From: Neelides folsomi
Taxonomy: Eukaryota; Arthropoda; Collembola; Neelipleona; Neelidae
DNA: 64,000 nucleotides
Reading direction: 5' to 3'
Assembly: GCA_034687125.1 (NCBI GenBank)
Contig: JAQGBZ010000086.1
Span: 143,604-207,603 of the forward strand
A program made the translations under genes and the position numbers. Shown piece by piece: positions 1 through 64,000 of this stretch. The first letter of the stretch is position 1. The number at the start of each line of letters is the position of its first letter. Under the pieces are notes generated by a model. The model was given only the letters and a program-made list of their open reading frames with translations, searched no databases and had not been told where the DNA came from.

Positions 1-229
1 GTGTGTCAATTTCCATAAATTTCCCCTTCCCGCCCTTCTTAAACCCGGGAAAGGTGGAGCGAAAAGGTGAAGGGGAAATTCCATAAAATCCACAAAATAA
101 CCTTCGACTTCTTCTCATTTCACTCAGACAATACAAACCTTCAGTCTCAATTTGAAAAAACTAACTTCACACCCAAAATACTCTTTTTCTTCCCTCATTT
201 CTTTCCCATTTTATTTCCAATATTCTTTC
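1..229. other. Non-genic, pyrimidine-rich lead-in
   Basis: No gene is visible. The first 75 bases are mixed (CCCGGG at about 46, then purine-rich). From about 80 to 229 the + strand is C/T-rich and forms the left flank of the first alternating core. Confidence 0.6.
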
Positions 230-345
230 CCTTTACATAAATACATATATGGTACATATGGTACATATGTAAATATCATATCATCCATATGCATACATAC
301 TTATGTAATATCCATATATCCTTTCTTTATCATTTTCTTATCTTT
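230..345. repeat. Alternating Y-R (TATA/TACATA) core
   Basis: Alternating pyrimidine-purine tract containing GGTACATAT twice in tandem (251-259, 260-268) and several CATATG sites. The left flank is C-rich and the right flank becomes G-rich from about 384. Confidence 0.7.
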
Positions 346-376
346 CCTATTCTTTCTTTATGCTTTCTTTCATATA

Positions 377-467
377 GTTCCTTATGGAGTTCTACATAGA
401 GTTCTATAGAAGTCCAAATAGAGTTCCTGAGTTCCTCATGAAGTTCCAAAGTTCCTCATGAAGTTGG
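377..467. repeat. Degenerate AGTTCC tandem array
   Basis: Repeated GAGTTC/AGTTCC words; AGTTCCTCATGAAGTT occurs twice near 430-465. It lies in the G-rich shoulder to the right of the first core. The unit is irregular (10-19 bp), so slippage is likely. Confidence 0.6.
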
Positions 468-719
468 ATCGATCAAGTTGAGCTAATAATGTTAAAGAGG
501 AATAAAGAATTCCAATTTTTTTCAATTGCCTCCAGCCTCCTCCGATTCCTATCAAAATGTTACGAGGATGACAAAACAAGGAGTGGGCCGCTCATCTTCC
601 CCTCCCGATTCAATTTCGGATCAATTGGAGAACCTAAGTGGCACTGGAGCATTTCCTGTCTTTACACTCAACACAAGAACCTTTGAACAATCTTTATACG
701 CTTTTCACTTCATGCGCCA
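468..719. other. Non-genic GC-richer stretch
   Basis: Short purine-rich and pyrimidine-rich patches alternate. Overlapping frames of 65 and 103 codons run here, but they share no motif and their composition mirrors the base bias, so no gene is called. The end (655-720) is C/A-rich and leads into the next core. Confidence 0.5.
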
Positions 720-965
720 ATACAACAAGTCCTCTTTTGATACATGCAATATACCAAATACAACTGTAATATACAAAATACCTATTTATATGCAAGTACA
801 ATTGTATCATTTAAAATCATACATACTATATATTTAAACCCATTCCATATAACTTTGATATAATATCAGTTATAAGTATGTAGTTACATACAGTTACAAC
901 TTCTTGCTTTAACATATTGTAAATCCATATATAGGTACTTCTATATTTACAATTCTCCATACAAT
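720..965. repeat. Alternating Y-R core
   Basis: Long TACA/TATA-rich tract. It is an exception to the usual skew pattern: C-rich sequence continues on its right side (965-1080). Confidence 0.6.
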
Positions 966-1440
966 TTCAAATAAATTTCTCATACAAATCTTCAGATCTT
1001 CCCAAGACGCCTGGAAGCATCAAAAGAATAAAAAGTAAGTAATTAAATTTACACTTTCCAACTTCATCTCCAAATCCCTGAAAAGCTTTTGTTCATATTT
1101 TTCTCTTTTTTTCATTTCCATCTAATCTTCAATTCTTCAATTGAGAATAAAATCCTTCCGTTTCTTATTGTTATGATCTTGTGTTTTAATTTAAATTCAA
1201 GAAAACAATTAGAAAATATAAAAATAAAAATGATAAAAAACTAACCTAACTAAATTCAAATCTTTCTCAATTTTAATATTTTAATAATATTTATTGTTAG
1301 ACATATTTATTACATATGGGACATGGCATATTTACATCTTTAAAATTATATTGGAATAATTATTTAAATATTAAAATAAATAATTTTAGTGATCAGTTTG
1401 TAAGTGTAAAAAGGTCTTTGTGTGTGATTAAAGTTGAATG
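966..1440. other. Non-genic; C/T-rich then A/T-rich block
   Basis: Pyrimidine-rich to about 1140, then almost pure A/T (1195-1385) with AATATTTA-type words. Nothing gene-like is seen. Confidence 0.5.
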
Positions 1441-1919
1441 AAAAGGGGGCCTAAAGAAAACACCTGTTCTTCTCCCTTACTCGGATGAAAGTGAAGGAGG
1501 AAGATCCGGACGGCCCCTTGAATAAACTCCAAGAGCTCAAACACTTCTCAATAAGAGGCTTTTTTCTTTCTCGGGGAGTGGGCAAGTTCCGGCGGATTAC
1601 TTTCCACTCTCTTCTCCATTTTGAAGGAAAGTCAACAAAGCCACAAGCTGAGTCAACTCCCAACATCTTCCTTTTACCTGCTCCCAAATCCCACACAGCG
1701 CTAATGAACCACCGCCAAATTCATTACTTTCCTAACCCAAGTTAAAGATCCAACTTACAACTCCCCCAAGAAACAACTTTGTTCTTCAAAGAGGATTCCA
1801 AACAACGAGGGCTAATGGGGATTAATTATTCCGAAGACAAAACATCCAAACTTTACAACAACTTCCTCTTTTAACCAATAACCAAAATACACACTTCTTA
1901 AATTTACACTTCCTCACTT
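1441..1919. other. Non-genic GC-richer segment
   Basis: Starts with a G run (AAAAGGGGGCC), then mixes purine and pyrimidine patches and ends C/A-rich toward 1919. Frames of 81 and 86 codons lie on opposite strands over the same bases, and neither has recognisable content. Confidence 0.5.
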
Positions 1920-2060
1920 CCTATATAAATATAAATACATGTACAGAATATATGTATATAACATACAGAATATATTTTACAAATATATCAGAAATGTACA
2001 AATATTATTTCAATTTTAGCTATGTACCATATACAAATTTTACCAGAACCAGGAATCTAA
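1920..2060. repeat. Alternating Y-R core
   Basis: Repeated ATACAGAATATAT and TATAAATA words. The left flank (1830-1920) is strongly C/A-rich. The right flank (2130-2250) is G-rich with GAAAGGAA/GAAGACGAAGG. Confidence 0.65.
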
Positions 2061-2159
2061 ATATTAAAAATGCATGTATGATTATATCATTATTTAGAAT
2101 ATTTAATCAAAGCGGCATTTTTAAGAATGTAATAAGTATGGTTAATTATATGCAGAGAT

Positions 2160-2433
2160 AAGTTCCAGGTTCGGGTTTTTTGCATAGAAAGGAATGAAAG
2201 GAACATAACGAAGACGAAGGATTTGTGAAGGGTATAAATTGTCACAGCATGTGATAATGAACCCGAGACTTCAACCCAGGGCTTCCTATCTTCACCTTCG
2301 ACCTTCACTCATTCGCTCCTTCATTCTCCGTGCTTGGGATGTTGGATCAAAATCCAGTCTATGACTAAAAGATCTTTCTGTTACAAATATACTCAAAATG
2401 AGAGATCCTTATACAGATCTGTAGCTAGATATT
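2160..2433. other. Non-genic; purine-rich then pyrimidine-rich
   Basis: G/A-rich to about 2260, flips to C/T-rich (2270-2325), then short mixed sequence. It shows one complete R-to-Y half-cycle with no gene. Confidence 0.5.
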
Positions 2434-2481
2434 ATACTGTGATATCCCAATATATATAATATATCTCGTGTATCACAGTAT
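2434..2481. repeat. Inverted repeat with TA-rich loop
   Basis: TACTGTGATA at 2435-2444 is the exact reverse complement of TATCACAGTA at 2471-2480, with one further paired base on each outer side. The loop is a TATATAATATAT tract, so this could extrude as a cruciform. Confidence 0.7.
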
Positions 2482-3099
2482 GTATATCTCATAAGTTTAA
2501 AAGGATAATCCACCAGGTCCTTATAAATACCATCACCGCCAACCACCGCAACGCATCTCAATTACCTCATCCCAAAATATTTTCCCAACGTCTCACACCA
2601 AGTCAGAAAACATTGGAGAAAGAGATGTTGAACATCTCTAATACTTCTAGGTTCTTTAGATTAATCATTATTTATTATTCAAATATATTCCATTTGAACA
2701 TGACCTACTTCAAACATTTCAAAACAAAGCCCAAAGAGGTTCAAAGTAATCAAAATACAAATGAACCACAATAAAGTAAATACAATTTCGGGATTTGAAA
2801 ATATGAAGATCTGAACATTGTGACAATTTATAAATATTTAAATAAATAAGTATATGCAAAAATGCGGGTGTTTTTATTATTTATATTATGCAATACGCTT
2901 TATTATGATTTCCTTCTTTGTAATATTATACACTTGTATCGTATTGTATTATTTAGATCCTATTTACATTTATGAATTTCCATCTTACATAAAATTGGAT
3001 AAAATGATATTTTCCCTTCAATAAAACCTTTACGTGACATTGATGCTCAATTTTCTCCCTTGTTCTCCAAAATTCTAACAAATTCACAAAATCCCCTGA
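2482..3099. other. Non-genic; C-rich then AT-rich
   Basis: 2510-2600 is C/A-rich (CACCGCCAACCACCGC). 2640-3050 is AT-rich with a weak alternating patch at 2880-2960. No gene is seen. Confidence 0.5.
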
Positions 3100-3259
3100 G
3101 AAAGAAATTCATCTTGAAAATTCATCCAAAAATTCATTTCGAAAATTCATCCAAAAATTCATTTCGAAAATTCAGAATTCCATTTTTGAAAGTCAGAAAA
3201 TCCATTTTGAAAATTCAGAAAATCCATTTAGAAAATTTAGAATATTCATTTTGAAAATT
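3100..3259. repeat. Tandem array, 21-25 bp unit
   Basis: Six units beginning GAAAATTCA: two nearly identical 25-bp copies (3116-3140, 3141-3165), then four 21-22 bp variants starting at 3166, 3188, 3209 and 3231. The frame through it is a translation of the repeat, not a protein. Confidence 0.85.
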
Positions 3260-3599
3260 GAAGCTAAGAATGGAAATAACGAGGCTGTTATTTAATCCTT
3301 TATTTTCTCATTATTTTCTCTGTCTCTTAAAACCGAAAGACGAAAATTTGAAATGTCTCCAGAGGTTGAAATTTCCGTCTGACCGACCGCAAATGTCCCA
3401 AAATTCCCAACTGTTGCAAATATTCATCTTCCCAGAATTCCTCCTTCCCTTTAAGTAAGTAGATTTGGGACTAATTGGAATTGTAAATGCCAGAAGGACG
3501 AATGAGATACAAATTAAAGGGAATTTCACTCCGATAATAATTCCCTTTCTTCTCCTGATAACAAAAGACGCCTCAAGACCCAATTCACCCAATTCTCAA
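3260..3599. other. Non-genic segment
   Basis: Mixed purine and pyrimidine patches, with overlapping short frames on both strands (66 and 93 codons) and no recognisable content. Becomes C/A-rich at 3575-3600 before the next core. Confidence 0.5.
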
Positions 3600-3900
3600 A
3601 CTTTGAATATAAAATGATATAAAATGACATTCTCATTATAACCCCTATTATACCATCTCAGGTTATAAAACCATATATATCCCTATATCAAATATTATAT
3701 CCATCTCTATTACACAATTTACGCATGACATTAATAAACTACCTTTAGTCCTTTTGTTCAACTTGAATGTAAATTTTGTATATTAAACCATTCTTCGTAA
3801 GATCATATACCTGTATCTTCTCTGGGCATACTTAATATGTATAATATATAATAATTATGTATAATATCCATATTAAAATATTTTATATATTAAAATAACT
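3600..3900. repeat. Alternating Y-R core (split)
   Basis: Two TATA-rich parts, 3600-3720 and 3825-3900. AAAATGATATA/AAAATGACAT is repeated at the start and TATGTATAATAT is repeated in the second part. Confidence 0.55.
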
Positions 3901-4155
3901 AAAAGTAGGACAATGGGAATAAAACTAGGATAATAATTTGAGTAATATAATTTAACATTTTATATCTTCATTCTCTCAGGCCTTTCTCACACCAACCCTT
4001 ATAAGACGTATCGTACCTTGAATATCTTGAGAAAGAAGAAGTTAATTTCATAAATTACCACGTATCTCGGCCGTAAGATCTAAAAGGATCTGAAACCACA
4101 AGAAAGAACCTGAAATAAACCTACAAAGGATTCCTCCATTCCTTTCATTATTTTA

Positions 4156-4193
4156 TCGGCCCTTGATGATAGGGGTCGGATTGGAAGGGCCGA
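4156..4193. repeat. GC-rich inverted repeat
   Basis: TCGGCCCTT (4156-4164) pairs exactly with AAGGGCCGA (4185-4193) across a 20-base loop. It is unusual in being GC-rich within an AT-rich region. No function can be assigned. Confidence 0.65.
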
Positions 4194-4286
4194 CACGAAG
4201 GGCTTCCAAAAAGGCTTCTACACATCTTCACGTAACCTCTACATCAATTCCTACCTGTACATAATTCCAGATAACTTAAGGGATCC

Positions 4287-4385
4287 TCAGGTAAATCCTT
4301 GTATAAATCCTAATGTAAATCCTAAACCAGACGTAAATCCAAAGTGAATCTATCCAAACTGAGATAAACTTCAGGTAAATCCAGG
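4287..4385. repeat. Degenerate GTAAATCC array
   Basis: TAAATCC or a close variant recurs at least five times with irregular 10-40 bp spacing, often as CAGGTAAATCC. Confidence 0.55.
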
Positions 4386-4800
4386 TATATTTATAAGCAG
4401 GTGAATCAAAGTATCAGTTTGAACTTGAGCGTATCTCACGTACGCGTCGACCATTGTAAATCCAAGGTCGGTCTAATGGGCTTCCTACATTGAAATACAT
4501 TGAAGTGAAGGTGAAGATCCAAGTTTTGGTTCCTTAACATCTTGATCACGACAAGGGAAAAGTTCGTCGTTGGAGACTCAGGTTGGCGGCCCTCGTTAAG
4601 AGAGAAATGTGGGTGGGAGAGAATCAATCCTTTTTCTATCTCTTGAACCTCCGTTTCTCTGTGGAGGGGCAAGTGATCCAGATTATCATTATTAGACTTC
4701 TCCGACCCTTTTTCAATGCCCTTGCTGACATAACCAAACCACTCGGTCTGATAGCTCAAAGATAATTCCTATAATTCCTCAGGGTAAACAAACATTTATT
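4386..4800. other. Non-genic GC-richer segment
   Basis: A 107-codon frame on the minus strand and a 60-codon frame on the plus strand overlap. Neither shows a motif or splice-compatible continuation, so no gene is called. Confidence 0.45.
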
Positions 4801-5160
4801 CTCCTTGTCCGACAATCAACTCCACCCTTTTTGAATCTAATCTTAAAATATAAACCAAATCAAAATGATATCCAAATCAATCCTGAACCAAATCAACCAA
4901 ATCAAAATAATACAAAAAGTATTTCAAAATAAAATCAAAGCCTCACAAAAACTGGCTAACTAAAATAAAAAATCTGATTAATTCCAATATTAAAAAGATT
5001 TAAAAAAATATCAATCGGAAAAATGAAAATTCCTTTAAAATGAAGAATAAAGAAAGAATAATTGAAGGAATCAAAAGGATGAATTGATGAAAATAATGAA
5101 AATAAATATTTGTAAAATGACCCAATTTGATTAAAATGGTTCAAGAAATGATGATGAAGG
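4801..5160. repeat. A-rich low-complexity block (AAATC/AAAT words)
   Basis: AAATCAA-type words recur from about 4855 to 4940, followed by an A/G-rich tract (5000-5160) with almost no C on the + strand. Low complexity, no gene. Confidence 0.55.
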
Positions 5161-5639
5161 GGAAAGCGCGGAGCCACCGAGGCGGAAATTGACAGACTTC
5201 ATTCCTCTCCACTTTTCTCCGCCCGACCGCCCAACACAGGCGGACCGAAGGGAATAAATTAAAGAGAGCGTAATTTGAAGGGAATTCTCCCATGAAGTCT
5301 CCGGCCGACCAAAAGAAAATTCCGTTTATGACCCGACAGATTAGCCACCGTCAATAAAAGGAAGACGTGGAAGGAGAAAACTCCACATCTGTCGCCATCC
5401 GCCCGACTCCAATCAATCCACTCACTTAATAACCTCTTTTTAACTATAACTTATATAAACTGAATCTTCCTCTATAAAATAGGCTTATTAAATAGGCTTA
5501 TAAAATAACCCCAAAAAATCAAAGTGCATCTGAAGACATCCAAAGGGCCAAAAAACGAGAAAAAAACAATCGCGTCTCTTTGTCTCGTCATTTCTAACCA
5601 CTCCAAAGTAGAACAAAAGTATTATTAAGTCCAGTCAAT
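5161..5639. other. Non-genic, relatively GC-rich segment
   Basis: One of the more GC-rich parts of the window (CCGCCCGACCGCCC at about 5220). It alternates G/A-rich and C/T-rich patches and ends C/T-rich before the next core. No frame of note. Confidence 0.5.
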
Positions 5640-5960
5640 TCCTCCTTATAAATACTGTATTGTAGTACATATGTATACAAGTTGTATAGAATACATATTA
5701 AATACATATATGTATGTATTGTACAGTTGAATGTAATGCGGTTGTAATATTATGCTAATTCGAAGTCGAATAAATAATAAATGCCAAAAGGAATTCTCGC
5801 CGTCGCTCGTGTAATCGGTCTCTTGAATTGTAATGAAGGCTCCCAAAATCATTCCCGATACTTCCTTTAATATCCCAAATATTATCATCTAAATAATACC
5901 GGTATTACTTCTCCGGTATACTTCTCCAGTATAAGGCCCTTTGGTATATCATTACATATA
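5640..5960. repeat. Alternating Y-R core (split)
   Basis: 5640-5740 is TACATATGTATA-rich and 5890-5960 is rich in CCGGTAT/CCAGTAT repeats. The first part has a G-rich right shoulder (5725-5755). Confidence 0.6.
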
Positions 5961-6239
5961 TTTCTCCATACAGATTCTTTTATATGATTCAAAGTCCGAG
6001 ATTCTCCATAGACTTGTCTTGTTGAAGGCCCCCATATTCAAATTACAGTTTGCGTAGCTGAATGGGCGGGAACATTGAAGTAGAGCAATCAAAAAAGGAT
6101 TAAAGTTCTTCATAAATGTCAGCGTTTCTCCATTCGTCATTCACGGAAGGAATACTTATCTAATTCCTACCTAATAATGTGACTGCTTTGCTATTAACAA
6201 TAATACGCAAAATGCATATTAAAGTTCAAGGAATATTCA
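5961..6239. other. Non-genic segment
   Basis: Mixed composition with a G-rich patch near 6060. No gene is seen. Confidence 0.45.
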
Positions 6240-6430
6240 AACCTAAAATCATCATATAAATACAAATCCAGTATAACTAATATATCTGTATATCTAAATC
6301 CGTTAATATAAATTCCTATTAAATTAACTTTAGGTAAAACTACATATACCGAACCTGTCTTTACATAGAGTATTTAGTAATGGTATGTAATGGTATGTAT
6401 AGGATATTGTTAATATATTCGTCCCTTTAA
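6240..6430. repeat. Alternating Y-R core with CA-to-TG switch
   Basis: The left half uses ATATAAATACAAATCC-type words. The right half contains GGTATGTAAT and GGTATGTATAGG. A clear example of the strand switch inside a core. Confidence 0.65.
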
Positions 6431-6799
6431 TTTTCAGATGCAAAATGAAGAGAGTGTAAGTGCATTAGGAAGGGTTGTAATGATCATAAAAAGACTCGGG
6501 CACATAATATTTTTCTCCGACTCTCCTTCTAATGGGCCGTGTGAGAGGTGCGTCGCCAGGGCAGGTGGATTGGGAAGGAAAAAACCAAACCTTCCAGGTA
6601 CCTCCAAAAGAACTCCAAAGAACTCTAAACAACTCCGATGGACTCCAATGGACCAGTTTGAATCTCTCGGTCGTAAAAGTGTGTGTGTGTGTGGAAAAGG
6701 CCGAAGATCCTCCGCTCGCCAGCTGCTCCTCCTTCATCATCATCCAAAACATCTCGACCTCTCCGACCCACCCTTTTTATAAACATCAGCTACCAACTC
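6431..6799. other. Non-genic half-cycle: G/A-rich then C/T-rich
   Basis: Purine/G-rich from 6435 to about 6590, mixed, then strongly C-rich: 6721-6800 has 32 C against 5 G by hand count. Three overlapping frames (95-114 codons) run through it on both strands without motifs. (GT)7 lies at 6679-6693. Confidence 0.55.
6679..6693. repeat. (GT)7 microsatellite
   Basis: Uninterrupted GT dinucleotide run followed by GG. Confidence 0.9.
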
Positions 6800-6960
6800 A
6801 CACTCACCACACAATATATACAAAATACAGATAATATATCTTATACAAAAATCACATAGAAAATTCAAATTCAAAAATCAGTTGGATGATATAAGATTTT
6901 ATGTATTTTATACTATAGGTATGTAAATTATATAAAATATAGCGAATATTAATATTCAAT
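6800..6960. repeat. Alternating Y-R core, textbook flanks
   Basis: ATATATACAAAATACAG on the left, TAGGTATGTAAATTA on the right. The left 80 bp have 32 C and 5 G. The 80 bp at 6961-7040 have 25 G and 5 C. Confidence 0.7.
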
Positions 6961-7899
6961 AAAATTGGGATAGTGTGTGTGTAATGGGAAATCTCTGATA
7001 TTTGAGCTATAGTAAATGGAAGGAGTGTGAGAGCCTTAAGGCCAAGCTTCCTTTTTCATATTGTTTCATATCTCCGTGGGGGGAAAGAGCCGCTAATGAG
7101 AATCCGGGAGTCAAGTGTCCCGAAAGGAATGAGCAATTAGAGAAAAAGGAGCTTTGTGAGCTCAGCTAATTTTGATTAATTTTCCCATGTACAAAAGGGA
7201 CGGATCTTCCATATTAAATATTTAATCTTCTTCTAAAACACCACTTGACTTCAAATTTTTATATTCTTCAAAACCAAAATCACTTTTACTTTTTAACTTT
7301 TGCTTCTTCTTCTTCTACTTCTATTTTATCCTATGTTAAATTACGTAACCCCAAGCTTTGAATTTTAACTCCGTTAAATTTCTCTTAATTCCCTATTAAT
7401 TATCAAATGATTAAAATCAATAAATCAAAATCCAATTAAATTACCTAAATTGAAACATGATGAAGAAATGTATTAATATTTTTGAAGTGGCTGTTGAGAG
7501 GATTGATGAGATCAAAAAATAAAAACCCGACCTTGACATTTGCCCTCTGTGAATCTCCGCTCTGGTTTTCCGGACGATAATGGAGGAGTCATGATCGCAT
7601 TATGAGCATCGCTCATCTTCATGCAAATGAAGGAACCAGGTGTAATAAAATAAACAACCGAGGGATCTTCCTCCTCCTCTCCCCTCCTCTAATTGCACGT
7701 TTAAATAAACATTATTTGCATAGGATGAGTTGTGGTTCTTCCCCGCCTGCCTTCTCCGCTCGATTATGATGTTAAACCTTAAGGGCGCCTTGCACAACTT
7801 TAAATTTTCCATTGTGGCTTATGGCTAAACACGCCTTAATTCACTACTTCAACACAACACCAGAAACCCAAGTTTAATGAACATACCAAAATGAATACT
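6961..7899. other. Non-genic segment between cores
   Basis: G-rich to about 7160. AT- and pyrimidine-rich at 7200-7450. A GC-richer patch at 7530-7780 includes CCTCCTCCTCTCCCCTCCTC-like pyrimidine runs, then C/A-rich sequence to 7900. The longest frame is 70 codons; no gene. Confidence 0.5.
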
Positions 7900-8030
7900 T
7901 ATCCTATCCTTATAATAAATCTCTCATACATACAGTAATTACATAAATATATAATACAGTATCATATCAGTATGTATCATATCAGTTCAATATATATATA
8001 ATACAGTATATATTATAGCAGTATTTTTAA
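7900..8030. repeat. Alternating Y-R core with internal duplications
   Basis: ATAATACAGTAT occurs twice (about 7950 and 7999), and CAGTATCATAT / AGTATGTATCATAT are tandem near 7958-7985. Left flank C/A-rich, right flank (8040-8090) G-rich. Confidence 0.65.
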
Positions 8031-8507
8031 ATTTAATGTTTAATGAGTGAAAAGACCAAGGTAAAGTTTAGTTTAGGATTTGAACTATCGGAATATGTTA
8101 ATAATAAACGAGGCCCATTTTTCAAATTCGCGTGTCTTGGTTGGTGAAGTATGTGAGAAATAATCGGGTGTTTGGGCCAATTTGAATTTGGTCCCTAATT
8201 GAACTTCTTTCACTCCTTTTTTTCTTCTCCCATAATGGAATGAATTGCCAGGTAGTGTTTGGGTTCTTTTATTGTCAAAGACATTCTGAGGCGGTCGTAA
8301 AAAAACTCGGGGTGAGACACAGGGGGCAAATTATGCATATTATGTCCCTTTGAATATTTCTGGCTGGCTAATATTCTCAAACCTCTCAATTTGCCAAGGA
8401 ATCGATCTGAGTCCGGAATAATCCAAAAAGGAGATTATAACACTTTTCCCCTTCGCCCACAAATCAAACATCAAGTATCGGAAATTTAATTTTCTTTCCT
8501 TTCCAAA
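8031..8507. other. Non-genic segment
   Basis: G/T-rich from 8035 to about 8190, mixed to 8340, then C/T-rich. No gene. Confidence 0.45.
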
Positions 8508-8615
8508 TCCCTCCGAATTTTCCTCTGAATTTTCCTCCAAATTCTGAGTTCAATTCTATAATTCTCAGTTCTCATCTGAGCTCTCTGAGTTTTCTGAGTT
8601 CTCTCCTGAGCGTTT
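8508..8615. repeat. Degenerate CTGAGTT / TCCTCTGAATTT arrays
   Basis: Three copies of a 14-bp CTCTGAATTTTC-like word (about 8511-8545) run into repeated CTGAG words (8543-8612). Confidence 0.65.
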
Positions 8616-9104
8616 CTCTCAATTTGTTCCGAATGAAAGAAATGAGATGTTAAGTTTTCTCACTTCGGATCCGATCCAAATGGTTTGAATCGGAGGATCC
8701 GAAATTCTGTCCGAATCGGAGAAGTTGAAATGTTTGAAAGTTGAAGAGGTTTAAAGAATTGTTCCGAAGAAAGGGTTCTTTCTTCCCTCTCAATTAAACG
8801 CCTCTCTTGAGTAAAGAAAGTTCCGCCCTATTAAAACTTTCCTCATCATCTTAAGGGGCTCATGAAGGGCGATTATGAATTTAAGAAATTTTCCTGATTA
8901 GTCGGAGGGGAGCTAATGGAGGGGAAGGGGCTGAGGGCCATCAGAGCCTCAATTATCCCATCATTACTTCCAAAGAGATGATGAGCCCCATTGGACCCAC
9001 AGACTTCATTCAAATCAATGAAAAACTCCCGAACGACTTTAAAAACTTGAAGTGAGAAAAACTGGATTTCGGTCTTCTTATAAGAAACACATAGACAATA
9101 AATT
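8616..9104. other. Non-genic segment
   Basis: Includes repeated GATCCGAA/GAATCGGA words at 8660-8725 in both orientations, then patches of both skews. A 79-codon minus-strand frame has no motif. Confidence 0.45.
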
Positions 9105-9265
9105 AGATTCATATAGATTTTATATAATTTATATGAATCTATCCAATTTATATGAATTTATACATTTACAGATAAATATATAGAATTGTAATACAATTGG
9201 ACTATAGGATTCTACATATTATATTGCATATGAATTGAAAGTGAAATGAATTTGTATATAAATTT
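9105..9265. repeat. Alternating Y-R core
   Basis: TTTATATGAAT(C/T)TAT is repeated three times near 9125-9170, then GAATTGTAATACAATT. The right shoulder is G/A-rich (9235-9330). Confidence 0.6.
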
Positions 9266-9639
9266 ATCAAGTAATAAAGTCACGCAAAGGAATGAGTTAA
9301 TGTGATTTAATATATAAAATAAATATTGGGCCTCGGAGGCCAAAGAACTTTCCCAAACTCCCCCGGATGGATTATGTGTGTAAGTGGAGATGCGGAGAGA
9401 TTAACATTCCCTCAAAATCCGCCGGCCCTCCCTTTCCCTGTACGTTGCCGGCTCCTGTTACAAATATTTTTCAACTCTGCAAAAAATACTCAAATTCCAT
9501 TCACTTTCCAATCCCACATCACTCACTACCATCAATTAAATCCAAGATACATCTAGCCCACCATACTCACACAAAAACCCTGCAGATTAATGGAGATCAT
9601 GTGAAAATTGTTTTTCTCTCCGCTCCATTTGAGATACAA
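9266..9639. other. Non-genic GC-richer half-cycle
   Basis: G-rich with GGGCCTCGGAGGCC at about 9328, flipping to C/T-rich from 9410. Strongly C/A-rich (CTCACACAAAAACCCTGC) at 9565-9590. Overlapping 76- and 107-codon frames are not supported as genes. Confidence 0.5.
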
Positions 9640-10030
9640 AATTTTAAATGCCTTTATAAACTCAATACCCTATATGAAATATATATTTAATGGAATCTGC
9701 AATATATAGGATAAAATTTGTATATAATCTATATTTGAAATATTTGCATTTCTACTCTTGTTTTAAGTATTCTCCAAATGTCCCGTTTCCCCTCATCAAA
9801 TTACACAAGTTTTTGTATAGGGATTTTATATGTAAACCAATCTGAATTTTATTCTCATTTTTATTTCTGTTTTATTTTACATTCAATTGAACTGAAAGAT
9901 TCAGTTCAATTATTTGTTCATTACATTAAGTTCAATTACATATTTTACATGGAGTTCAATTACATTTTAGCTCAATTGGGTTCCCAATTATCTGTAGATT
10001 TAGCACATCATGTAAGACTCATATTGGTAT
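9640..10030. repeat. Long TA-rich core with GTTCAATT repeats
   Basis: TATATA words at 9660-9750, then AGTTCAATTACAT-like units near 9902, 9928 and 9952 and TAGCTCAATTGGG at 9968. The skew turns to G-rich at 10020-10070. Confidence 0.55.
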
Positions 10031-10529
10031 GTGGATAATTCGGGTCAGAAAGGATTGGGTGTAAAAAGGTTCATCTGGTGCTCGTCAATTATCTCCTCAT
10101 GTTTCGCGGGGAAATCAAACGGGGCCATAAAAGGAATGCGGTGGGGAAGTTTGAGGGAGTCAACGACAACTTCTTTTTACCTTCTTTCAAAACTCCCATT
10201 TTTTATTCCTTCCATTACGCGACCATGACATTGGGACTGGAAGCCCCCAATCCATCAGAATGACAAGTTGAGATTGGTGAAGGCGGTTCCTTATTAGCAA
10301 ACTTATTTTTCATGCTCCAATTGGACTTTTTAATCCTCACCTTCCCCACCCATTAGCTCATAAACCTCGGAAAGGTCGGAAAAGGTCAAGACCAAGGAAG
10401 AGAAGAAAGAGAAAGAAAAAGTGTTTTAATTGTTACTTTAACTAATGATTTATCTCTTGGTTGGAAGATTCTTATAATTATTATGCAATTAACTTTATAA
10501 TTGCACCTTTACAATTCTCCTCAATAATA
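10031..10529. other. Non-genic segment
   Basis: G-rich to about 10160, C/T-rich at 10170-10215, GGAAAGGTC tandem (10370-10390), A/G-rich at 10395-10420. No gene. Confidence 0.5.
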
Positions 10530-10700
10530 TTGCAATAACCAATTATACATAAAATATACAAAACTACAGTTTCCTATACAATATATTATACAATTTTTTA
10601 GATTCCTGATAGATAAGTACTGTATATTTTCTGGTATATATTGTACTTTTAATTTCTGGTATATCCTACAATATTGTACGTTTTTCGTATTTTGTACAAG
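10530..10700. repeat. Alternating Y-R core
   Basis: Left side has TATACATAAAATATACAAAAC; TTTCTGGTATAT is duplicated at about 10628 and 10651. The right side is G/T-rich (10705-10765). Confidence 0.6.
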
Positions 10701-11417
10701 ATTATAAAATGGACGGTTTTTGAGGTTCGTAAAATAATCATAATGACAAAGCTGGGTATTTGAAAAAACTTCACCTCCAATAAAAACTCAAGTTTATGTT
10801 AAAGTCTCTAATGCCCAGGCCAATCTTCTTTTCCAATTCCTTTTTTCCCAATTTGCAAATCTTGGTCTGAATTTGAATCTCATTTTCCCATTGTCAAAGG
10901 AAGAGAAAAATGGTGAATTTGAGGGTGGGATGGAGCTGTCATAAGAGTTTACATTTCCCTTCCTCCTCCTGAATAAATGAAGAAGACGTATAGACAGAGA
11001 TATTCAGGAAATTATGACAACCAAGGCAAACCCACGGACGTGAAAATAGAATTCCAAATATACAAATTGGAGTTCCTTCCTCTTCCCAAAACATCTTCTC
11101 AACCTCTTTCTCAAAAGATCTCTCCAAAGACTTCCAAAGACTCCAAACATTCCTTTTTCCACTTAGGATCTCTTCAGCTTCTTCGCTCCCTCATTTGAAG
11201 TAATATTTTAAAAAACTGTGTTCATTAATGCCAAAGCCACAGCCACTTGGTTAAAATATTCACTTATAGATCACTTTGGAGTCTTAAGACTTTAACACAT
11301 TAACTAGATAGGAATTTTAACATTGGTTCGTCTAGCTAACATTAAGTATAAGTCTTCTTAGTCTTCTTGGTAAGAGTCTCTTACCAAAAGTAAAGCTAAA
11401 AGTATGAGATTTTCCAC
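10701..11417. other. Non-genic segment
   Basis: G-rich, then C/T-rich (10815-10855), G/A-rich at 10895-10940, C/T-rich at 11070-11180 with CTCCAAAGACTTCCAAAGACTCC-type duplication. No supportable gene. No classical core is seen between 10.7 and 11.8 kb. Confidence 0.45.
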
Positions 11418-11455
11418 GATAGAATTTTTATATTGGGATAGAATTTTTATATTGG
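11418..11455. repeat. Perfect 19-bp tandem duplication
   Basis: GATAGAATTTTTATATTGG occurs at 11418-11436 and again at 11437-11455 without mismatch. A diverged third copy follows. Confidence 0.9.
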
Positions 11456-11809
11456 GTAGATAGATTTTCAACATTGAGTGGATTTAGTAATATGGCTAAG
11501 GATTTTTTTCCTAATTTCACCAAGATTGTTAAAAAGGAATAAAACTCCTCAACGCGCGATTTGGGTTCTAATCGCCCATAAAGGAGGAGATAATTTGAAT
11601 ATAATTCACCTCTCGTTACTTATCACAAAGAAATTGAAATAAATGAGGGAAGATCCAAATCATCCCAAAAACCGGCCCTTTTACAACAACTTTACAAAGA
11701 TTTCTCTCCCTTCATTTAATAAATGGCAAAGTGAGAGTTCTGGATGAATTTCAACAAAGATATATCAAATACATTCGAATAAATATCTCCCATAAAACTC
11801 ATTAAAACA
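11456..11809. other. Non-genic segment
   Basis: Mixed, with C/A-rich sequence from 11660 to 11810 before the next core (11751-11820 has 13 C and 2 G). No gene. Confidence 0.45.
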
Positions 11810-11935
11810 TAAACATATAAAACAAGGAGATACTGTATACATAACTATCAGCATATATAAATCTTATAAGATTTAATAAAAAATATATCTTGATATAATA
11901 ATACAGATATGTATGTATGTATGTAGTAAATATAT
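11810..11935. repeat. Alternating Y-R core with TATG microsatellite
   Basis: Contains (GTAT)n at 11911-11925. The sequence to the right (11911-12000) has 22 G and 4 C. Confidence 0.7.
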
Positions 11936-12399
11936 GCATAGAGATTATATGAAAGTTTAAAAAGTGTATAAGAGAGAATCTAGCGAGTAATCATGGGAGT
12001 TGTGTAGAAAACTTGAACCAAGTCACGAAGACGTTGATGGGGAGCTGAATTTTGGATGATCGGAAGCTTAAATTCATCCCTTCCTTTTAACTCCCAAACT
12101 CTTCCCGATCTCCTTCACTTTTCATTAAGGTGGAAGAGGCGTCAGAGAAATTCCTTCCCTTTCCATCATCATCTTTTCCATCTCTCGGTCCAGCCAGAAC
12201 AAGACGGAGACGAAGAACGAGACTACGCTCATGAAGGACGAAATAATTCCCTCTTTTTTTCCCAACCGGTTCCAAGATCTGTAACTCGGCGATCTTCATG
12301 TGCAGAATTTCTGGCTGCAGTCGAAACCTCAAACACGCAACTTCTCAACTGACTCCCTCAAACTTTAACATCTCTATTAAATTCCACACGGTCGAAGCT
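11936..12399. other. Non-genic half-cycle
   Basis: G-rich to about 12065. Flips through GAAGCTTAAATTC to C/T-rich (12070-12200), then mixed. Frames of 98 (plus) and 81 (minus) codons overlap, with no motif. Confidence 0.5.
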
Positions 12400-12660
12400 T
12401 TTCATTAAAACTACATACGAGACGAGATATATAAAATTACATAGGGGAAGATAACAAATTACAAGATATACAAAATATATAAAAACATAAAATACTCAAA
12501 GATATACAAAATATATAAAACATATAAAATACTCAAAGGCGTACAAAATACTTGTACATATAAAAATATATGTTATACAAAAGTATACAGTATATTTAAG
12601 TATTTGATATAAATACAAGTTTGTATTAAATGTTTTAGAGATAAAAGATAGAAAATGTAT
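12400..12660. repeat. Alternating core carrying a 36-bp tandem duplication
   Basis: Two copies of a 36/37-bp unit that starts GATATACAAAATATATAAAA and ends AATACTCAAA, at 12465-12500 and 12501-12537, then a diverged third (GTACAAAATACT). The right side is G-rich (12640-12690). Confidence 0.8.
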
Positions 12661-13069: not shown

Positions 13070-13215
13070 TGGAATTATATCAGACATTATATCAGAAATA
13101 TACAGAATCCATATGATACAAAAGTAGCAAAAGTGCATATGGTATAAATTGGTAAAATGTACTAGTTATGTATATGAAAGTGTATGTAATATATATATAT
13201 AATGTACTGATATGT
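13070..13215. repeat. Alternating Y-R core
   Basis: ATATCAGA(C/A)AT is duplicated at 13078-13100 and TAATATATATATATAATG lies at 13186-13205. The right shoulder is strongly G/A-rich (GGATATGGGGGGAG-like at 13262-13275). Confidence 0.65.
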
Positions 13216-23610: not shown

Positions 23611-23689
23611 TTATATGAATATCAGTTCGACGCGAGCCTTATTTACACGTAAGTAGTTGTTCACTAGAAGATTTATTGGAAGACATGGA

Positions 23690-52130: not shown

Positions 52131-52349
52131 AAAAATGATAAATAAACTTGTTGCTATTTTGCCCTCAGTTTGCTTTCAACACTCCGCCCATCTCTTTTTT
52201 TCATCCTCTTATTTATGAAATTTATGAAAGTGGAGATTTAATATTCAAAAAACTCTTTAACAACTTTCCTATAAATTCCAACATTAACTTTTCCACTCAA
52301 AGATTTCATTCCCTCGCAAAAGATCGATCGATATTTCTTAAGAAAACAA
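52131..52349. other. Non-genic C/T-rich segment
   Basis: Pyrimidine-rich, with TTTATGAAATTTATGAAAG tandem near 52212. The 107-codon frame 52148-52471 follows the pyrimidine bias; no gene. Confidence 0.45.
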
Positions 52350-52650
52350 TTTTAGTTAATATTACATACCTAATATATCATATAAATATAGCTATTATAT
52401 TCCATATACACTTTATTTATCCATTTTATATCCAATATCCAACCACTTCTTTTCACATCATAAAAATATGAAATTGTTAACGAAAAAATAATAATGTTTT
52501 CTAACTATAATATTGTTTAAGTAATACTTTTATATCCTTTAATAGTATTACATTATATGTATTGTGTAGTTATACATTATGTATGCATACTTTAATATAT
52601 TTACTTTATACATGCATTTAATATGAAGTAATAAAAGTGGTAAAATTATA
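52350..52650. repeat. Long TA-rich core
   Basis: TACATACCTAATATATCATATAAATATAGC; TTATATCCAATATCCAACC; TTATATGTATTGTGTAGTTATACATTATGTATGCATAC on the right, then G/A-rich (52650-52700). Confidence 0.6.
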
Positions 52651-53020
52651 AGCAAAGGATGGTTTCAAGTATGAGGAATTAAGGAAGAGTTGAAAGGATT
52701 TAATGTCCATAATGGAACATATCGTTGGCCATTGAAGGAGTTGGAGGGCTTTCCTCATTTTTCTTTTTCTTCCCTCACCAACTCGAAGAAATCTCCTTTT
52801 GGGTTTCTTCTGAATCTTCGTTTTCATGGTGTGATTTTGACATTTGTGAGTGGGAAAGTGTTTATGAAATCTCAACTGGGCGAAAGGGCTACATAATTCT
52901 TGTAAAAGTGATATAGAAATACTCGATTTGGCACACTTTTCCACTTCTTCTCCTTCTCTTCTTCTTTTCCTTCTTTTCTCCTCCCGTCTGCTCCAACTTC
53001 TCGAGGGCTTCTCAATTCTT
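52651..53020. other. Non-genic half-cycle
   Basis: G-rich to 52750, mixed, G/T-rich at 52830-52870, then strongly C/T-rich (52940-53010). No gene. Confidence 0.5.
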
Positions 53021-54115: not shown

Positions 54116-55009
54116 TTTAAATCTTCCACACATTCACTAACTTTCGCAAGTTTTATATCTTCATGTAAATATGAGTTTGTGGGTTATAATATAAATCCTA
54201 TATGTTCTCTTATAAGCCCAATTTCTTTTATATTACCATAATGTTGGGTTTTAACGTTAAATAAATATAAGGTGAATGGCTGAGCTTCAATATTGACTTT
54301 AATCTTGTGAAGTTAAGGGGAGATTTGGGTAAGATTTAATAGCCGAAATGCCGTCGGTATTTTGCCCATCCTTCTCCTACCCAATTGATGTAATTTCCCT
54401 TCCTTTATGACTTACTTACTCGCGAAAAGAAGTAAAAAGGAGTAAAAGGGATAAAAAAGGGTCTCCGCCTCTCTCGGTCATAATCACTTTATTCCCTCTA
54501 ATTTGTCAGGTTGAGTGGAGGCGGTCGGAAGAGTCCTTGAGGGTAATTGGAGAGCCAAAGGTTAAAATAAGATTAGGAAGGTGAGGAGATGCAATAAATT
54601 CACCATAAGTCATTCGGGTCTTGACATGGTCCAAACCGCAGCTCCCCGCCGTGACACGTCTCCACTTCACTCACCTTCAATCTCACCCATTCCATTTATC
54701 TTCTATTTAATTCATTCTACAGATCTCTATTTCTCATCCTCATCCCTATCTCTTCCTCATCTTCTTCCTATCTCTTTCTCCTGCTCTTTCTCATCTTCTC
54801 TGTGTTTTCCTTCCTCATCCAAAATCCAATGATTTGAATGAGGGGAGAAGATCCGGCGAAGAACCGCAGGTTCCATTAAGCATTGTCGGGCCTTCATTTA
54901 ATAATTGAACATTTCGGGTTCTTGGAGTGGTTTTTCCTTATGAACGAATCTTCCTTAGGGTTTCCTCTTTACAGACATCTTGTATTATTTCTCTTAATTG
55001 TACAGCTAC
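54116..55009. other. Non-genic segment
   Basis: TA-rich at 54175-54265, G/T-rich 54295-54345, C/T-rich 54365-54405, A/G-rich 54425-54465, G-rich 54505-54595, strongly C/T-rich 54655-54825 (CTCATCCTCATCCC; TCTTCCTCATCTTCTTCC), G-rich 54835-54870. No gene: the 83-codon frame is Ser/Leu from CTC/TCT runs. Confidence 0.5.
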
Positions 55010-55225
55010 TGCATTTACTCACTTCTACATTACATGCACATGTTAAATACATTAGTTGAACCAATATATATCAATTTATGGTACATATAAGTATCTGTAC
55101 TTGTACACATTGTATACTGTATAAGTATGCTCTATAGTAAAATAGTTATATGTGTATGATGTATGTATGGTATGTACACTAAAGGTAGTATGAACATATT
55201 ACAGTACAGTGTATGGTATATGGGA
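55010..55225. repeat. Alternating core, textbook flanks
   Basis: TCTACATTACATGCACATG on the left; GTATGATGTATGTATGGTATGTACAC on the right. 54961-55040 has 20 C and 6 G; 55211-55260 has 21 G and 2 C. Confidence 0.7.
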
Positions 55226-55608
55226 GAACGGGATTGTATGGAGTTTAGCGGTGGAAATGGAAGAGTATGAGAAACAAGCGGAACTCACAATTCCCCTTTA
55301 ATTACTTTAACGTAATCGATGGAAATAATTAGTCGGGAGGGCAATTAGTTTTATTGCGGTCTCAGCAGTCCTTCAACTCCTTCATGCGTAAGGACGACTT
55401 CTGTTCTTTTCCTACAAAATTTTATAAAGTAGTCAGATGGACGATCCTGACAGCCAAATCAAACTCATCCTAACTCACGCAGTTTATATAACACACATTT
55501 CATAGCTATGGACAGACAACATGCCAAAGATCAAGATGAGGAAAACGAAGATGTAAAATACAAGAATTTGGTCAAGATGAGTTTTAAGACTTTACAATAT
55601 AGGTCTTT
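55226..55608. other. Non-genic half-cycle
   Basis: G-rich to 55285, mixed, C-rich at 55450-55505, A/G-rich at 55520-55590 with GATCAAGATGAGGAAAACGAAGATG. No gene. Confidence 0.45.
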
Positions 55609-61779: not shown

Positions 61780-62160
61780 AAGAAATCTTTAAATTCCGAT
61801 GTCATTTTCATCCCTCATTAAATGTACTTATTAAAATCTTCAAATGCTTCATTTGATTTTATAAATTATATTATCGTTTTAAATTACACTTTTAGAAACA
61901 AATATGGCAATAACTAAAAATTAATTCGCTATTAAATAATTAATTTGAAAATATATTAATTATCCGAATAGTTAATAAAATATAAATTAAATAATATTGT
62001 AAAAAAAATTTCAGTACATTTTTTATTCATTATTTTATTAAAAAATGACGTACTTTCTGAACCTTTAAAAGGAAATCCAAATTCCAGTAAATCACAATTT
62101 TAAAAAAAAGATGAAAGGATTTAAAATTGGAATTTCACTTAAAAAATACACGATTTTGAA
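61780..62160. repeat. A/T-rich non-alternating block
   Basis: AATTAATTCGCTATTAAATAATTAATTTG; TTAATAAAATATAAATTAAATAATATTG; A8 and T5 runs. No gene. Confidence 0.6.
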
Positions 62161-62629
62161 TTGGGGCTTAAATCAGAAAATTCTCAATTCACGACTTTTA
62201 CTTGTGGCGGTTTACAGGTTTAAATTGGGGAGATGTTTACGATTAATGTTATTTATTTGAATTTCTTTCAAATGAGGTTGAGAAAGCGAAGAGACTCCAA
62301 AAAGGAAAGTTTTCTCCTTTTAACTTCAATTAGATTGGGAATTTGATGAAATGTAAAAATATGAAAAATATGGGAAATGGAGAGCTTCTTTGTCAAATTT
62401 ATTTGATTGTAGGAGGGAAATGGGATTTTGAACCATGTTTGTGACATCTGTCACATGTGTCGTCTCCCAATTTTTGAAATCCTCTCCAGCTTAACAATTT
62501 CCTCCCAATTTTTCCGAGATGGTTAGGAAAATGTGGGACTTCCTTTTCCACTTATTACCTCCATCTTTTCCACACACTCATCTTCATCTTAAACATCACA
62601 TGGGCCAAAGGTGCTTAACCTTAAACACG
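62161..62629. other. Non-genic half-cycle
   Basis: T/G-rich, G/A-rich 62270-62310, AAAATATGAAAAATATGGG tandem (62356-62375), GTGACATCTGTCAC stem near 62440, C/T-rich 62465-62600. No gene. Confidence 0.5.
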
Positions 62630-62960
62630 CGACATTAAATAACTTAAAATAAACCCAAATATTAAAAAACTTAAAATAAATTCCAAGCATTTATTAATAC
62701 ATTTAGTATTTTAATATTTAACAAAAGCAGATAGTTAATTACGAAAGACCATTCTAAAATAAATAACTAGATATTTTAATTAAATGAAATTAATAAAATT
62801 TTCCAATTGTCTTTTTAAATCTAAGAATTTTCTTAAATTTAATAAACTTAAAAAGAGAAAACGATAAAAGAGAAATGTTAATGGTAAAATAAAAGGGACA
62901 ATGCGTAGTAAAAAAAGTGTAAGATAAAAAGAAGGAGAATTTCCCAATAATAAAAAGCAA
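62630..62960. repeat. A/T-rich block becoming A/G-rich
   Basis: AACTTAAAATAAA(C/T)CCAA duplicated (62641 and 62670); TTTAGTATTTTAATATTTAAC; then G/A-rich (62850-62945). The 89-codon minus frame is Phe/Ser-rich by composition. Confidence 0.55.
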
Positions 62961-63275
62961 AGACAAAGGAAGATTCCATGTTGAGATTTTAAGATATCTC
63001 ACACACGTGCGGATGAACCCAAAATGCCCAATGTACCAAATGTATAAAATGTAATACACTTGTATGACACGATTACTTTTTTACGCTTACGCCCGCGCTT
63101 TTACTTACGACATATCTCAGACATTTCAAAAGTCCAGATTTATAGAAAATGATTCTCGGATATGAAAACTCATATTAAAAGTAATATCATAAGAGTTATA
63201 TTCTTATAAATACATATTACCTTACATATTGTAAAATTTATATCTAAAAACTGCGTTGAACTGCGTAATTTCCTC
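62961..63275. repeat. Weak alternating core
   Basis: CCAATGTACCAAATGTATAAAATGTAATAC (AATGTA x3, 63029-63054) and TTATATTCTTATAAATACATATTACCTTACATATTG (63197-63231). GC-rich ACGCTTACGCCCGCGC lies between. Confidence 0.5.
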
Positions 63276-63364
63276 GTAATACCCGTCAAATACACTCCAA
63301 ATACCCGGGTAATAGTAATCGGTAACGTTTATAGGTAATATTTATTGGTAATACCCGTAATACT
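63276..63364. repeat. AATACCCGnnTAAT / GGTAATA array
   Basis: AATACCCGTCAAATAC, AAATACCCGGGTAATAG, then GGTAACG, GGTAATATTT, GGTAATACCCGTAATAC. It switches from C-bearing to G-bearing units at CCCGGG (63304-63309), a miniature of the larger skew flip. Confidence 0.75.
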
Positions 63365-63469
63365 CAAAGGATGATATTGAATCGGTTTTGGCCCATAGAT
63401 AAACTATAACTTGCTATAAACTTGAAGAATCAAAACCATAGCGAGAAAGTTCAATTAATAAATTTTAAG

Positions 63470-63570
63470 GTTTATGTATTTATTATATTAATACTACTTT
63501 AGGTATTTCTCTTGTGGTATGGTTATATATACATATATTTATATATGGTATATATGGCGGTATTTTAAAT
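63470..63570. repeat. Alternating core
   Basis: TATTTATTATATTAATAC; GGTATGGTTATATATACATATATTTATATATGGTATATATGG. Followed by G/A-rich sequence (63570-63645). Confidence 0.65.
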
Positions 63571-63929
63571 GAGTTTGAGAGGCGGGAAGATTCGGGAATA
63601 AGAAGAAGCGGGAAGCGTCGGAATGTTCCGGTGAGAAAGAATTAATCAAAGTTCATAAATCATTTTGTATGGCAAGGGGTGGATTGAGGGAAAACGGAGG
63701 GAATCTTCAATCATCCGCGTTCCGCATCGATCCTTCCGAACTCATTGGTGGTGGAGGGTCATAAGGGACGTCTTTTTTATGGGGAAGTCATAAAGGGAAA
63801 TATATAAATTCATTTCCAGAAGATGCAATTTGACCTCTGCGAGTTCATTGTGGCGATCCTTTCATTATGTATTCCAACCTCATCCTCCCCATTCTTCCAC
63901 TGCCTCCTTTTTCTTATTGCGATAATAAC
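63571..63929. other. Non-genic half-cycle
   Basis: Strongly G-rich (63575-63700), mixed, G-rich (63748-63790), then C/T-rich (63870-63915). No gene. Confidence 0.5.
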
Positions 63930-64000
63930 ACATACAGAAGAGATATATTTATATATATGACATATTGGATGGGACTTCTTACATAACTATCATATATATA
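63930..64000. repeat. Alternating core cut by window end
   Basis: ATATATTTATATATATGACATATTGG and ATCATATATATA at the last base. Confidence 0.55.

What the first reader, a model, noticed from the sequence alone, without database searches (positions are those of the whole stretch)
1..64000. Composition wave: cores of alternating Y-R DNA separate C-rich (left) from G-rich (right) flanks about every kilobase
On the + strand most TATA/TACATA cores have a C-rich left flank and a G-rich right flank. Hand counts: 6721-6800 32C/5G against 6961-7040 25G/5C; 11751-11820 13C/2G against 11911-12000 22G/4C; 22261-22350 26C/5G against 22541-22610 14G/5C; 30731-30810 22C/6G against 31031-31100 20G/0C; 54961-55040 20C/6G against 55211-55260 21G/2C. 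I tracked about 60 cores by eye and most follow the rule. Exceptions: about 965, 2480, 13860, 17200 and 41850-41995. The pattern is nearly symmetric under reverse complement about each core, although the cores are not homologous. Possible causes: bidirectional transcription or R-loop-linked mutation outward from each core, closely spaced replication starts, chromatin anchoring, or DNA-elimination signals. None is shown by the sequence.
Basis: partly seen in the sequence, partly recalled or inferred. Interest (0 to 1): 0.72.

Follow-up and report, generated by a model that had tools for sequence, protein, structure and literature searches.

The report
Strand-composition wave in arthropod noncoding DNA
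In long non-coding DNA of a small arthropod genome, AT-rich spots recur about every 600 letters, and across most of them the bases shift from C-richer before the spot to G-richer after it on each strand, the kind of trace left by a direction-dependent process working outward from spaced sites.

Summary
All ten hand counts are exact. GC skew rises from left to right across 87 of 106 AT-rich cores in the window, 51 strictly from negative to positive, 5 the reverse; of 77 non-overlapping cores 66 rise (p about 1e-10). Corrections: spacing is about 520-600 bp, not a kilobase; AT-richness predicts the crossing better than Y-R alternation (0.178 and 0.067); the wave is mainly amino (A+C) to keto (G+T), fading about 280 bp from the core. 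On other contigs 17 of 19 sampled stretches are positive, but only 9 of 19 by more than two standard errors. It continues through presumed introns of an Ig-domain gene on the same contig. Units share no sequence, show no clear oriented promoter or splice motif, and their cores are rich in tandem repeats. The polarity needs a 5'-3' directional process (inference). Best guess: nucleosome-poor cores with short divergent transcription that exposes the outward strand to deamination. An island-anchored version and replication initiation remain open. Eight paper searches listed no such wave (listings capped).

The parts
1..64000 (.). Region carrying the wave: 106 AT-rich cores (100-bp AT above 0.74) with GC-richer islands between them; right end of contig C86
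   Evidence: each of six 10-kb pieces (1-60000) shows G-before-C asymmetry 0.050-0.078, z 7.9-13.7
6721..7040 (.). Core near 6917 with C-rich left (32C/5G) and G-rich right (25G/5C) flank
11751..12000 (.). Core near 11914 with C-rich left and G-rich right flank
22261..22610 (.). Core near 22553; 22433-22508 is a tandem repeat of a 23-bp unit
30731..31100 (.). Core near 30980, left skew -0.44, right +0.36
54961..55260 (.). Core near 55094, left skew -0.07, right +0.42 at the 30-250 bp scale
48619..49119 (.). One of the clearest cores (48869): left -0.54, right +0.40; tandem repeat 48873-48917 at its centre
52260..52760 (.). Clear core (52510): left -0.63, right +0.40
1..41448 (.). Large-scale C excess on + (skew -0.111), turning to G excess (+0.039) from there to 64000; an offset on which the wave rides

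Best explanation
The wave-rich non-coding DNA of this arthropod is built of non-homologous units of about 600 bp: an AT-rich, tandem-repeat-prone core roughly 100 bp wide and a GC-richer island. Most likely each core is a nucleosome-poor site that lets a strand-exposing process start in both directions and run outward for about 250 bp, most plausibly short divergent RNA polymerase II transcription of the enhancer-RNA or upstream-antisense kind. The exposed outward strand loses C (to T) and A (to G) by deamination over evolutionary time, so G+T accumulate to the right of each core on + and, by symmetry, A+C to the left. Shown here: the unit spacing, the polarity, its amino/keto nature, its reach, the lack of shared sequence, and its presence in presumed introns. 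Inferred: nucleosome depletion, transcription, deamination.
For: Polarity and symmetry. Mainly keto-amino excess (peak about 0.12 near 160 bp, 0.009 at 280-300 bp) with purine excess of only 0.005-0.051. On the outward strand C stays low over about 280 bp while G recovers sooner, and T exceeds A. In 43 blocks of 700-1000 bp the skew still falls to 0.018 at 280-320 bp, so its reach looks fixed. Period near 600 bp: GC autocorrelation -0.0110 at 280-380 bp and +0.0053 at 540-700 bp against 150-bp-block null sd 0.0009 and 0.0008 (window plus loci chosen for strong wave; the window alone shows it too). Passages of PMC10030826 (12 of 23 places shown) give G+T excess on the human non-template strand with cytosine deamination as a possible cause. 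TATAAA is slightly commoner outward than inward within 40 bp of cores (83 and 63, about 1.7 sd). G-before-C at 100-200 bp changes sign under plain reversal, so a process blind to 5'-3' direction cannot make it (inference).
Against: Beyond 40 bp from the core there is no oriented TATA or splice-donor enrichment beyond trinucleotide content, and initiator-like words show no clear bias. The abstract of PMC3315797 states that start-site skew on the coding strand is C-biased in invertebrates, the opposite of what outward starts from cores would need. The wave is nearly as well described as anchored on GC islands: GC peaks more than 300 bp from an AT peak still show -0.25, AT peaks far from GC peaks +0.28. 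Only 9 of 19 stretches from other contigs exceed two standard errors. One core per 600 bp would be a very dense set of germline start sites. No RNA or chromatin data were available.
Confidence: 0.38

Rival explanations
1. Islands, not cores, are the units: each GC island is a regulatory element with divergent short transcription from its centre, and the transcribed strand is C-biased as reported for invertebrate start sites; cores are unconstrained spacers that drifted AT-rich and gained tandem repeats.
For: Sign fits the stated invertebrate C bias. Tandem repeats cover 14.8% within 40 bp of cores against 2.3-2.6% at 200-320 bp. Strong wave is seen in an Ig-domain gene region and at a homeobox frame (L012), almost none in L009 with a NAPRTase frame and L017 with a thyroglobulin-repeat frame; but L011 with an RPS23-like frame has a clear crossing (0.162, se 0.059), so the link to gene type is loose. 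Anchoring cannot be told apart.
Against: In long blocks the skew is confined to about 280-300 bp from the core and is near zero towards the block centre. No conservation data.
Confidence: 0.2
2. Cores are many weak replication start sites (MCM loading in nucleosome-free regions); the lagging-strand template is exposed and deaminates.
For: Same sign and similar scale reported for the 5500 most abundant yeast MCM sites (400-bp windows, nucleosome-free regions, GC skew rising 5' to 3'; PMC10945306, 12 of 21 places shown).
Against: Forks normally run for kilobases (recalled), so a skew that fades within about 280 bp with amplitude near 0.2 needs very short or very regular forks; the yeast paper calls its signature subtle.
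Confidence: 0.14
3. Sequence-encoded nucleosome barriers with flanking nucleosomes, composition being selected or mutated by nucleosome position alone.
For: Human nucleosome-inhibiting barriers are GC-poor, mean size 153 bp, spread genome-wide, with GC oscillations beside them (PMC4966569, 12 of 39 places shown).
Against: The passages shown speak of GC content, not of a skew reversal (the word skew occurs once in the text, in a place not shown); I see no clear nucleosome-scale ripple in GC out to 300 bp and no evident quantised spacing. A polarity needs an added directional cause.
Confidence: 0.14
4. Meiotic double-strand breaks at AT-rich open sites with deamination of the 3' single-stranded tails.
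For: Break repair could also make the short tandem repeats found at cores; inference.
Against: 5'-3' resection leaves the - strand single-stranded on the right, so deamination would remove G from + there; observed is the larger loss of C.
Confidence: 0.04
5. Artefact of chance, repeats or a decayed satellite or transposon.
For: Tandem repeats are frequent.
Against: Masking does not change it; adjacent units align no better than shuffled ones, 17.97 against 18.15, n 124; a 701-bp piece of the window and a 2000-bp piece of L008 found only themselves; no same-island inverted repeat.
Confidence: 0.02

Closest known systems
GC-skew rise across MCM-loaded nucleosome-free regions in budding yeast (PMC10945306, passages)
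   Same: Skew rises 5' to 3' across a nucleosome-free intergenic site on a scale of a few hundred bp
   Different: Here amplitude is about 0.2 on each side, sites recur about every 600 bp in intergenic DNA and presumed introns, and no MCM or nucleosome data exist
Human nucleosome-inhibiting energy barriers (PMC4966569, passages)
   Same: GC-poor sites scattered through genic and intergenic DNA with GC rising beside them
   Different: Human barriers lie one per 1.5-1.8 kb with 153-bp quantisation below 1 kb; here about 520-600 bp, no quantisation seen, plus a strand polarity not in the passages read
Transcription-linked G+T excess on the non-template strand, and divergent promoters or enhancers (PMC10030826, passages)
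   Same: Keto excess on the strand running away from a putative start, symmetric about the site
   Different: No clear start-site motif and no RNA evidence; one site per 600 bp; invertebrate start sites are stated to be C-biased (PMC3315797, abstract and passages)
Strand-bias segments of the mouse genome (PMC2266913, abstract and section list)
   Same: Segmented strand bias that its author does not attribute to transcription
   Different: The abstract describes A-rich/T-rich boundaries with transcription peaking around 20 kb away, not units of hundreds of bp; here the G/C part dominates

Membership tests
Bidirectional promoter or enhancer-RNA start sites | Divergent capped RNAs from the edges of an open site | not testable with these tools
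   no RNA data
Bidirectional promoter or enhancer-RNA start sites | Outward-oriented core-promoter motifs | tested here: not met
   TATAAA 121 outward and 145 inward beyond 40 bp, z -0.85; within 40 bp 83 and 63, about 1.7 sd; TCAGT no clear bias. Motif-poor start sites are not excluded
Bidirectional promoter or enhancer-RNA start sites | Keto excess on the outward strand | tested here: met
Replication origins in nucleosome-free regions | Skew rising 5' to 3' across the site | tested here: met
Replication origins in nucleosome-free regions | MCM or ORC occupancy, fork polarity reversal | not testable with these tools
   no data
Nucleosome-inhibiting energy barriers | GC-poor barrier of about 150 bp predicted by a bending-energy model | tested here: inconclusive
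   GC 0.17-0.19 within 40 bp of the core centre, 0.24 at 40-60 bp, about 0.40 by 260 bp; the width is partly set by the 100-bp smoothing, and the physical model was not run
Nucleosome-inhibiting energy barriers | Inter-barrier distances quantised in 153-bp steps | tested here: inconclusive
   spacing histogram in 50-bp bins shows one broad mode at 400-650 bp and an excess in the first bin; too few intervals
Nucleosome-inhibiting energy barriers | GC oscillation at nucleosome scale beside the barrier | tested here: not met
   no clear ripple out to 300 bp in 20-bp bins, 212 half-blocks
Tandem satellite or dispersed transposon family | Sequence similarity between units | tested here: not met
   adjacent and random unit pairs no better than shuffled; two pieces single-copy

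The most novel reading that the evidence does not exclude
Expanded non-coding DNA of this arthropod is partitioned, with no shared sequence, into units of about 600 bp by spaced bidirectional initiation sites (of transcription or replication) that act in the germline often enough to write a strand-mutation footprint on most units of wave-rich regions, introns and gene deserts alike. Genome sequence alone would then give a map of open sites in an organism with no functional data.
Probability: 0.3. Interest if true: 0.82.

Novelty: new variant of a known kind. Interest (0 to 1): 0.6.

Why it matters
Strand asymmetry of this strength, alternating over hundreds of bases in animal non-coding DNA, would mean that local, directional germline processes, rather than only gene transcription or distant forks, set base composition there. 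It would allow regulatory or initiation sites to be called from sequence alone, and would make the question of what drives skew at nucleosome-poor sites testable in one species by RNA 5'-end and replication mapping.

Tried and rejected
Y-R alternation as the main cause: AT content predicts better. Splice-donor signal: outward GTAAG looked enriched (93 outward, 27 inward) but trinucleotide content explains it (86 and 22, expected fraction 0.76, z 0.9). Hairpin elements: same-island inverted score 10.84 against 10.77 between islands. Inverted similarity across a core was slightly above that between cores (12.51 against 11.78); I put this down to shared local composition without testing it. Decayed satellite or transposon. 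Coding exons in the window: low hexamer scores and no Pfam match above cut-off for the 9 window frames given, five of them among the 53 frames of 90 aa or more and four shorter (one weak match, CLAMP, E 0.043). The other frames were not scanned. Rfam and tRNA scans empty. Deciding whether cores or islands anchor the wave failed. Skew relative to gene sense was looked at in only two places: the Ig-domain gene region (sense strand slightly G-rich) and L034 beside a channel-domain match on + (mean + skew -0.044, the opposite sign).

Selection to disclose: searches used the window plus loci chosen for a strong G-before-C signal (or, for C86 90-140 kb, for nearness), so their amplitudes are upper figures; one search used the window and C86 90-140 kb. 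Searches used the window and all 20 loci; the window and all 25 loci of 8.7-10 kb then held. L001, L022, L027 and the short histone loci L028-L033 were left out. L034 was taken because a channel domain matched beside it, not at random. On checking the draft I lowered the island rival from 0.22 to 0.20, because L011 is not a weak-wave locus by its crossing.
Full report
What the sequence is. The window is the last 64 kb of contig C86 (207,603 bp) of a 75.1-Mb, 840-contig assembly. It looks intergenic or intronic: longest stop-to-stop frame 189 aa, no Rfam or tRNA hit, no Pfam match above cut-off in the 9 window frames given. The mitochondrial contig C742 has I-Q-M-nad2-W-C-Y-cox1-L2-cox2-K-D, with trnL2 between cox1 and cox2, which from recalled knowledge is the insect/crustacean type; the species was not identified. 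On the minus strand of C86, between about 93.5 and 116.1 kb, lie exon-like frames of an immunoglobulin-domain protein; one frame matches Pfam Ig_3 above cut-off. I read them as a kirre/roughest-like gene from recalled features (signal-peptide frame, C-terminal THV); the PDB search with one piece gave receptor tyrosine phosphatases S and delta as best matches, so the family name is not tested. The window begins 27 kb upstream of the first recognised frame.

Is the observation true? All ten counts are exact. GC skew rises across 100 alternation maxima by 0.243 (se 0.032) and across 100 AT maxima by 0.292 (se 0.029); random positions 0.002, sd 0.038. In the 20 loci then held the values are lower, 0.072 and 0.122 (se 0.016 each; random -0.003, sd 0.017). 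With a fixed threshold 87 of 106 window cores rise and 51 change strictly from negative to positive; among 77 cores at least 500 bp apart 66 rise. In a joint regression AT content has 0.178 and alternation 0.067, both outside 1000 circular shifts (maxima 0.072 and 0.055).

A core-free statistic. Counting C-then-G against G-then-C pairs, G-before-C is preferred at 10-300 bp, most at 100-150 bp (-0.071 in the window, z -22; -0.035 in the 20 loci, z -19; null: 20-bp blocks shuffled with random strand), turning to C-before-G at 300-500 bp in the window. The quantity is unchanged by reverse complement and changes sign under plain reversal, so it needs a process that knows 5' from 3'. Causes blind to direction (AT-biased mutation, biased gene conversion, tandem duplication, simple constraint) cannot give it alone; this is inference.

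Spacing. GC content and skew both have their largest spectral values at 585-630 bp in the window, and GC autocorrelation is -0.0097 at 300-350 bp and +0.0038 at 600-700 bp. In the window plus strong loci the values are -0.0110 at 280-380 bp (null sd 0.0009) and +0.0053 at 540-700 bp (null sd 0.0008); ten loci with a weak signal show no trough (+0.0040 and +0.0009). Core spacing has a broad mode at 400-650 bp where 50-bp block shuffles fall off steadily. Order is lost after one period, so this is not a satellite ladder.

Anatomy of a unit. In 257 blocks from the window and nine loci GC rises from 0.18 at the core to about 0.4 at 280 bp; on the outward strand at 80-120 bp the bases are A 0.335, C 0.121, G 0.178, T 0.366. 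In 212 half-blocks the keto-amino difference climbs to about 0.12 near 160 bp and is 0.009 at 280-300 bp, while purine-pyrimidine stays at 0.005-0.051. In 43 blocks of 700-1000 bp the skew falls to 0.018 at 280-320 bp, so its reach looks fixed from the core; in 67 blocks of 200-400 bp it is weak (0.065 at most). Yet 75 GC peaks more than 300 bp from an AT peak also show a crossing of -0.25, so I cannot say from sequence which is the anchor. ApC followed by A, C or T is about half as frequent on the outward strand as on the inward strand (0.51, 0.47, 0.54). CpG and GpC are palindromic and say little.

What is absent. Of 1000 pentamers and 2070 hexamers compared with trinucleotide expectation the z-scores have sd about 1.1; TATAAA, GTAAG, GTGAG and GTAAGT show no bias of their own beyond 40 bp; ATTTTG (z 4.5), AAAAAA (z 4.0) and AAAAA (z 3.7) lead, AATAAA is at 2.8. 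Within 40 bp of cores TATAAA is 83 outward and 63 inward, a weak lean. Units resemble each other no more than shuffled copies do, direct or inverted, and islands are not hairpins.

Where it occurs. Of 25 stretches outside the window 23 have a positive mean crossing, pooled 0.161 over 384 cores; leaving out the six on C86, 17 of 19, of which 9 exceed two standard errors; of the six on C86 4 do. Strength varies: L008 0.464, L006 0.428 and L034 0.375 (six cores each for the last two), but L007 -0.011, L009 0.009, L017 0.026, L021 -0.038. L009 has a NAPRTase frame and L017 a thyroglobulin-repeat frame; L011, with an RPS23-like frame, has 0.162 by crossing but only 0.010 by the G-before-C measure; L012 has a homeobox frame (Otx-like, recalled) and 0.244; the L008 and L019 frames scanned gave no match. 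So the wave goes with expanded non-coding DNA only loosely. The presumed introns of the Ig-domain gene, bounded by eye, show it (8, 10 and 5 cores; 0.300, 0.394 and 0.179, the last with se 0.132) with an offset of only -0.02 to -0.05 on +, so the gene's own transcription does not erase it. The stretch upstream of that gene and window 1-41 kb are C-rich on + by 0.10-0.11, and the window turns at 41448, as if a long leftward transcript began there; this is a guess.

Tandem repeats. Short tandem repeats cover 14.8% of bases within 40 bp of cores and 2.3-2.6% at 200-320 bp, against 1.6% and 0.3-0.5% in local shuffles; across 26 sequences the excess correlates with wave strength (Spearman 0.69, p 1e-4). 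Core slippage, break repair or merely relaxed constraint would all fit.

Mechanism. The sign (loss of C and A on the strand leading away from the core) is that of an exposed non-template strand or lagging-strand template. Passages read: human genes carry G+T excess on the non-template strand, with deamination as a possible cause (PMC10030826); yeast MCM-bound nucleosome-free regions show a rising skew over 400 bp (PMC10945306); but start-site skew in invertebrates is stated to be C-biased on the coding strand (PMC3315797, abstract and passages), which would favour starts at island centres. I put short divergent transcription from cores first (0.38), island-centred transcription second (0.20), replication and nucleosome barriers at 0.14 each. 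Break resection gives the wrong sign.

Novelty. Eight searches of the paper library showed no report of such a wave in their listings; several listings were cut (for example 10 of 5,462, 15 of 34), no preprints are held and most subscription journals are missing. The parts are known (skew at nucleosome-poor sites, GC-poor nucleosome barriers); the spaced, strong, unit-by-unit combination in an animal genome seems new. One species, no functional data, and a selected set for several amplitudes limit the claim.

Noticed in passing
window 41448; C86 about 185.05 kb: Large-scale GC skew turns from -0.111 to +0.039; with an Ig-domain gene on the minus strand to the left this could mark a distant transcription start with a very long first intron.
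   Followed up: partly
L026, L015, L023 (C86:90001-120000): Exon-like frames of a minus-strand immunoglobulin-domain gene, kirre/roughest-like by recall, with gaps of several kb between them.
   Followed up: partly
window, e.g. 3105-3259, 22433-22508, 25559-25698, 26749-26829, 57512-57610: Many short tandem repeats (96 TRF rows in 64 kb, some overlapping), concentrated at AT-rich cores in wave-rich loci.
   Followed up: yes
window, all: GC-skew autocorrelation has a bump at lags 9-13 bp, near the helical repeat; may come from short-period tandem repeats or nucleosome phasing.
   Followed up: no
G000 genome: Only six histone-fold matches, five over the cut-off, in 75 Mb (counts of large families are lower bounds); few for an animal by recall, perhaps an assembly gap.
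   Followed up: no
G000:C28 and C22: Large clusters of I-set domains with open frames up to 2332 aa; giant muscle-protein-like by recall.
   Followed up: no
L021:5467-7848: A 794-aa open frame with no Pfam match at E 0.01 in a low-GC contig (C600).
   Followed up: no
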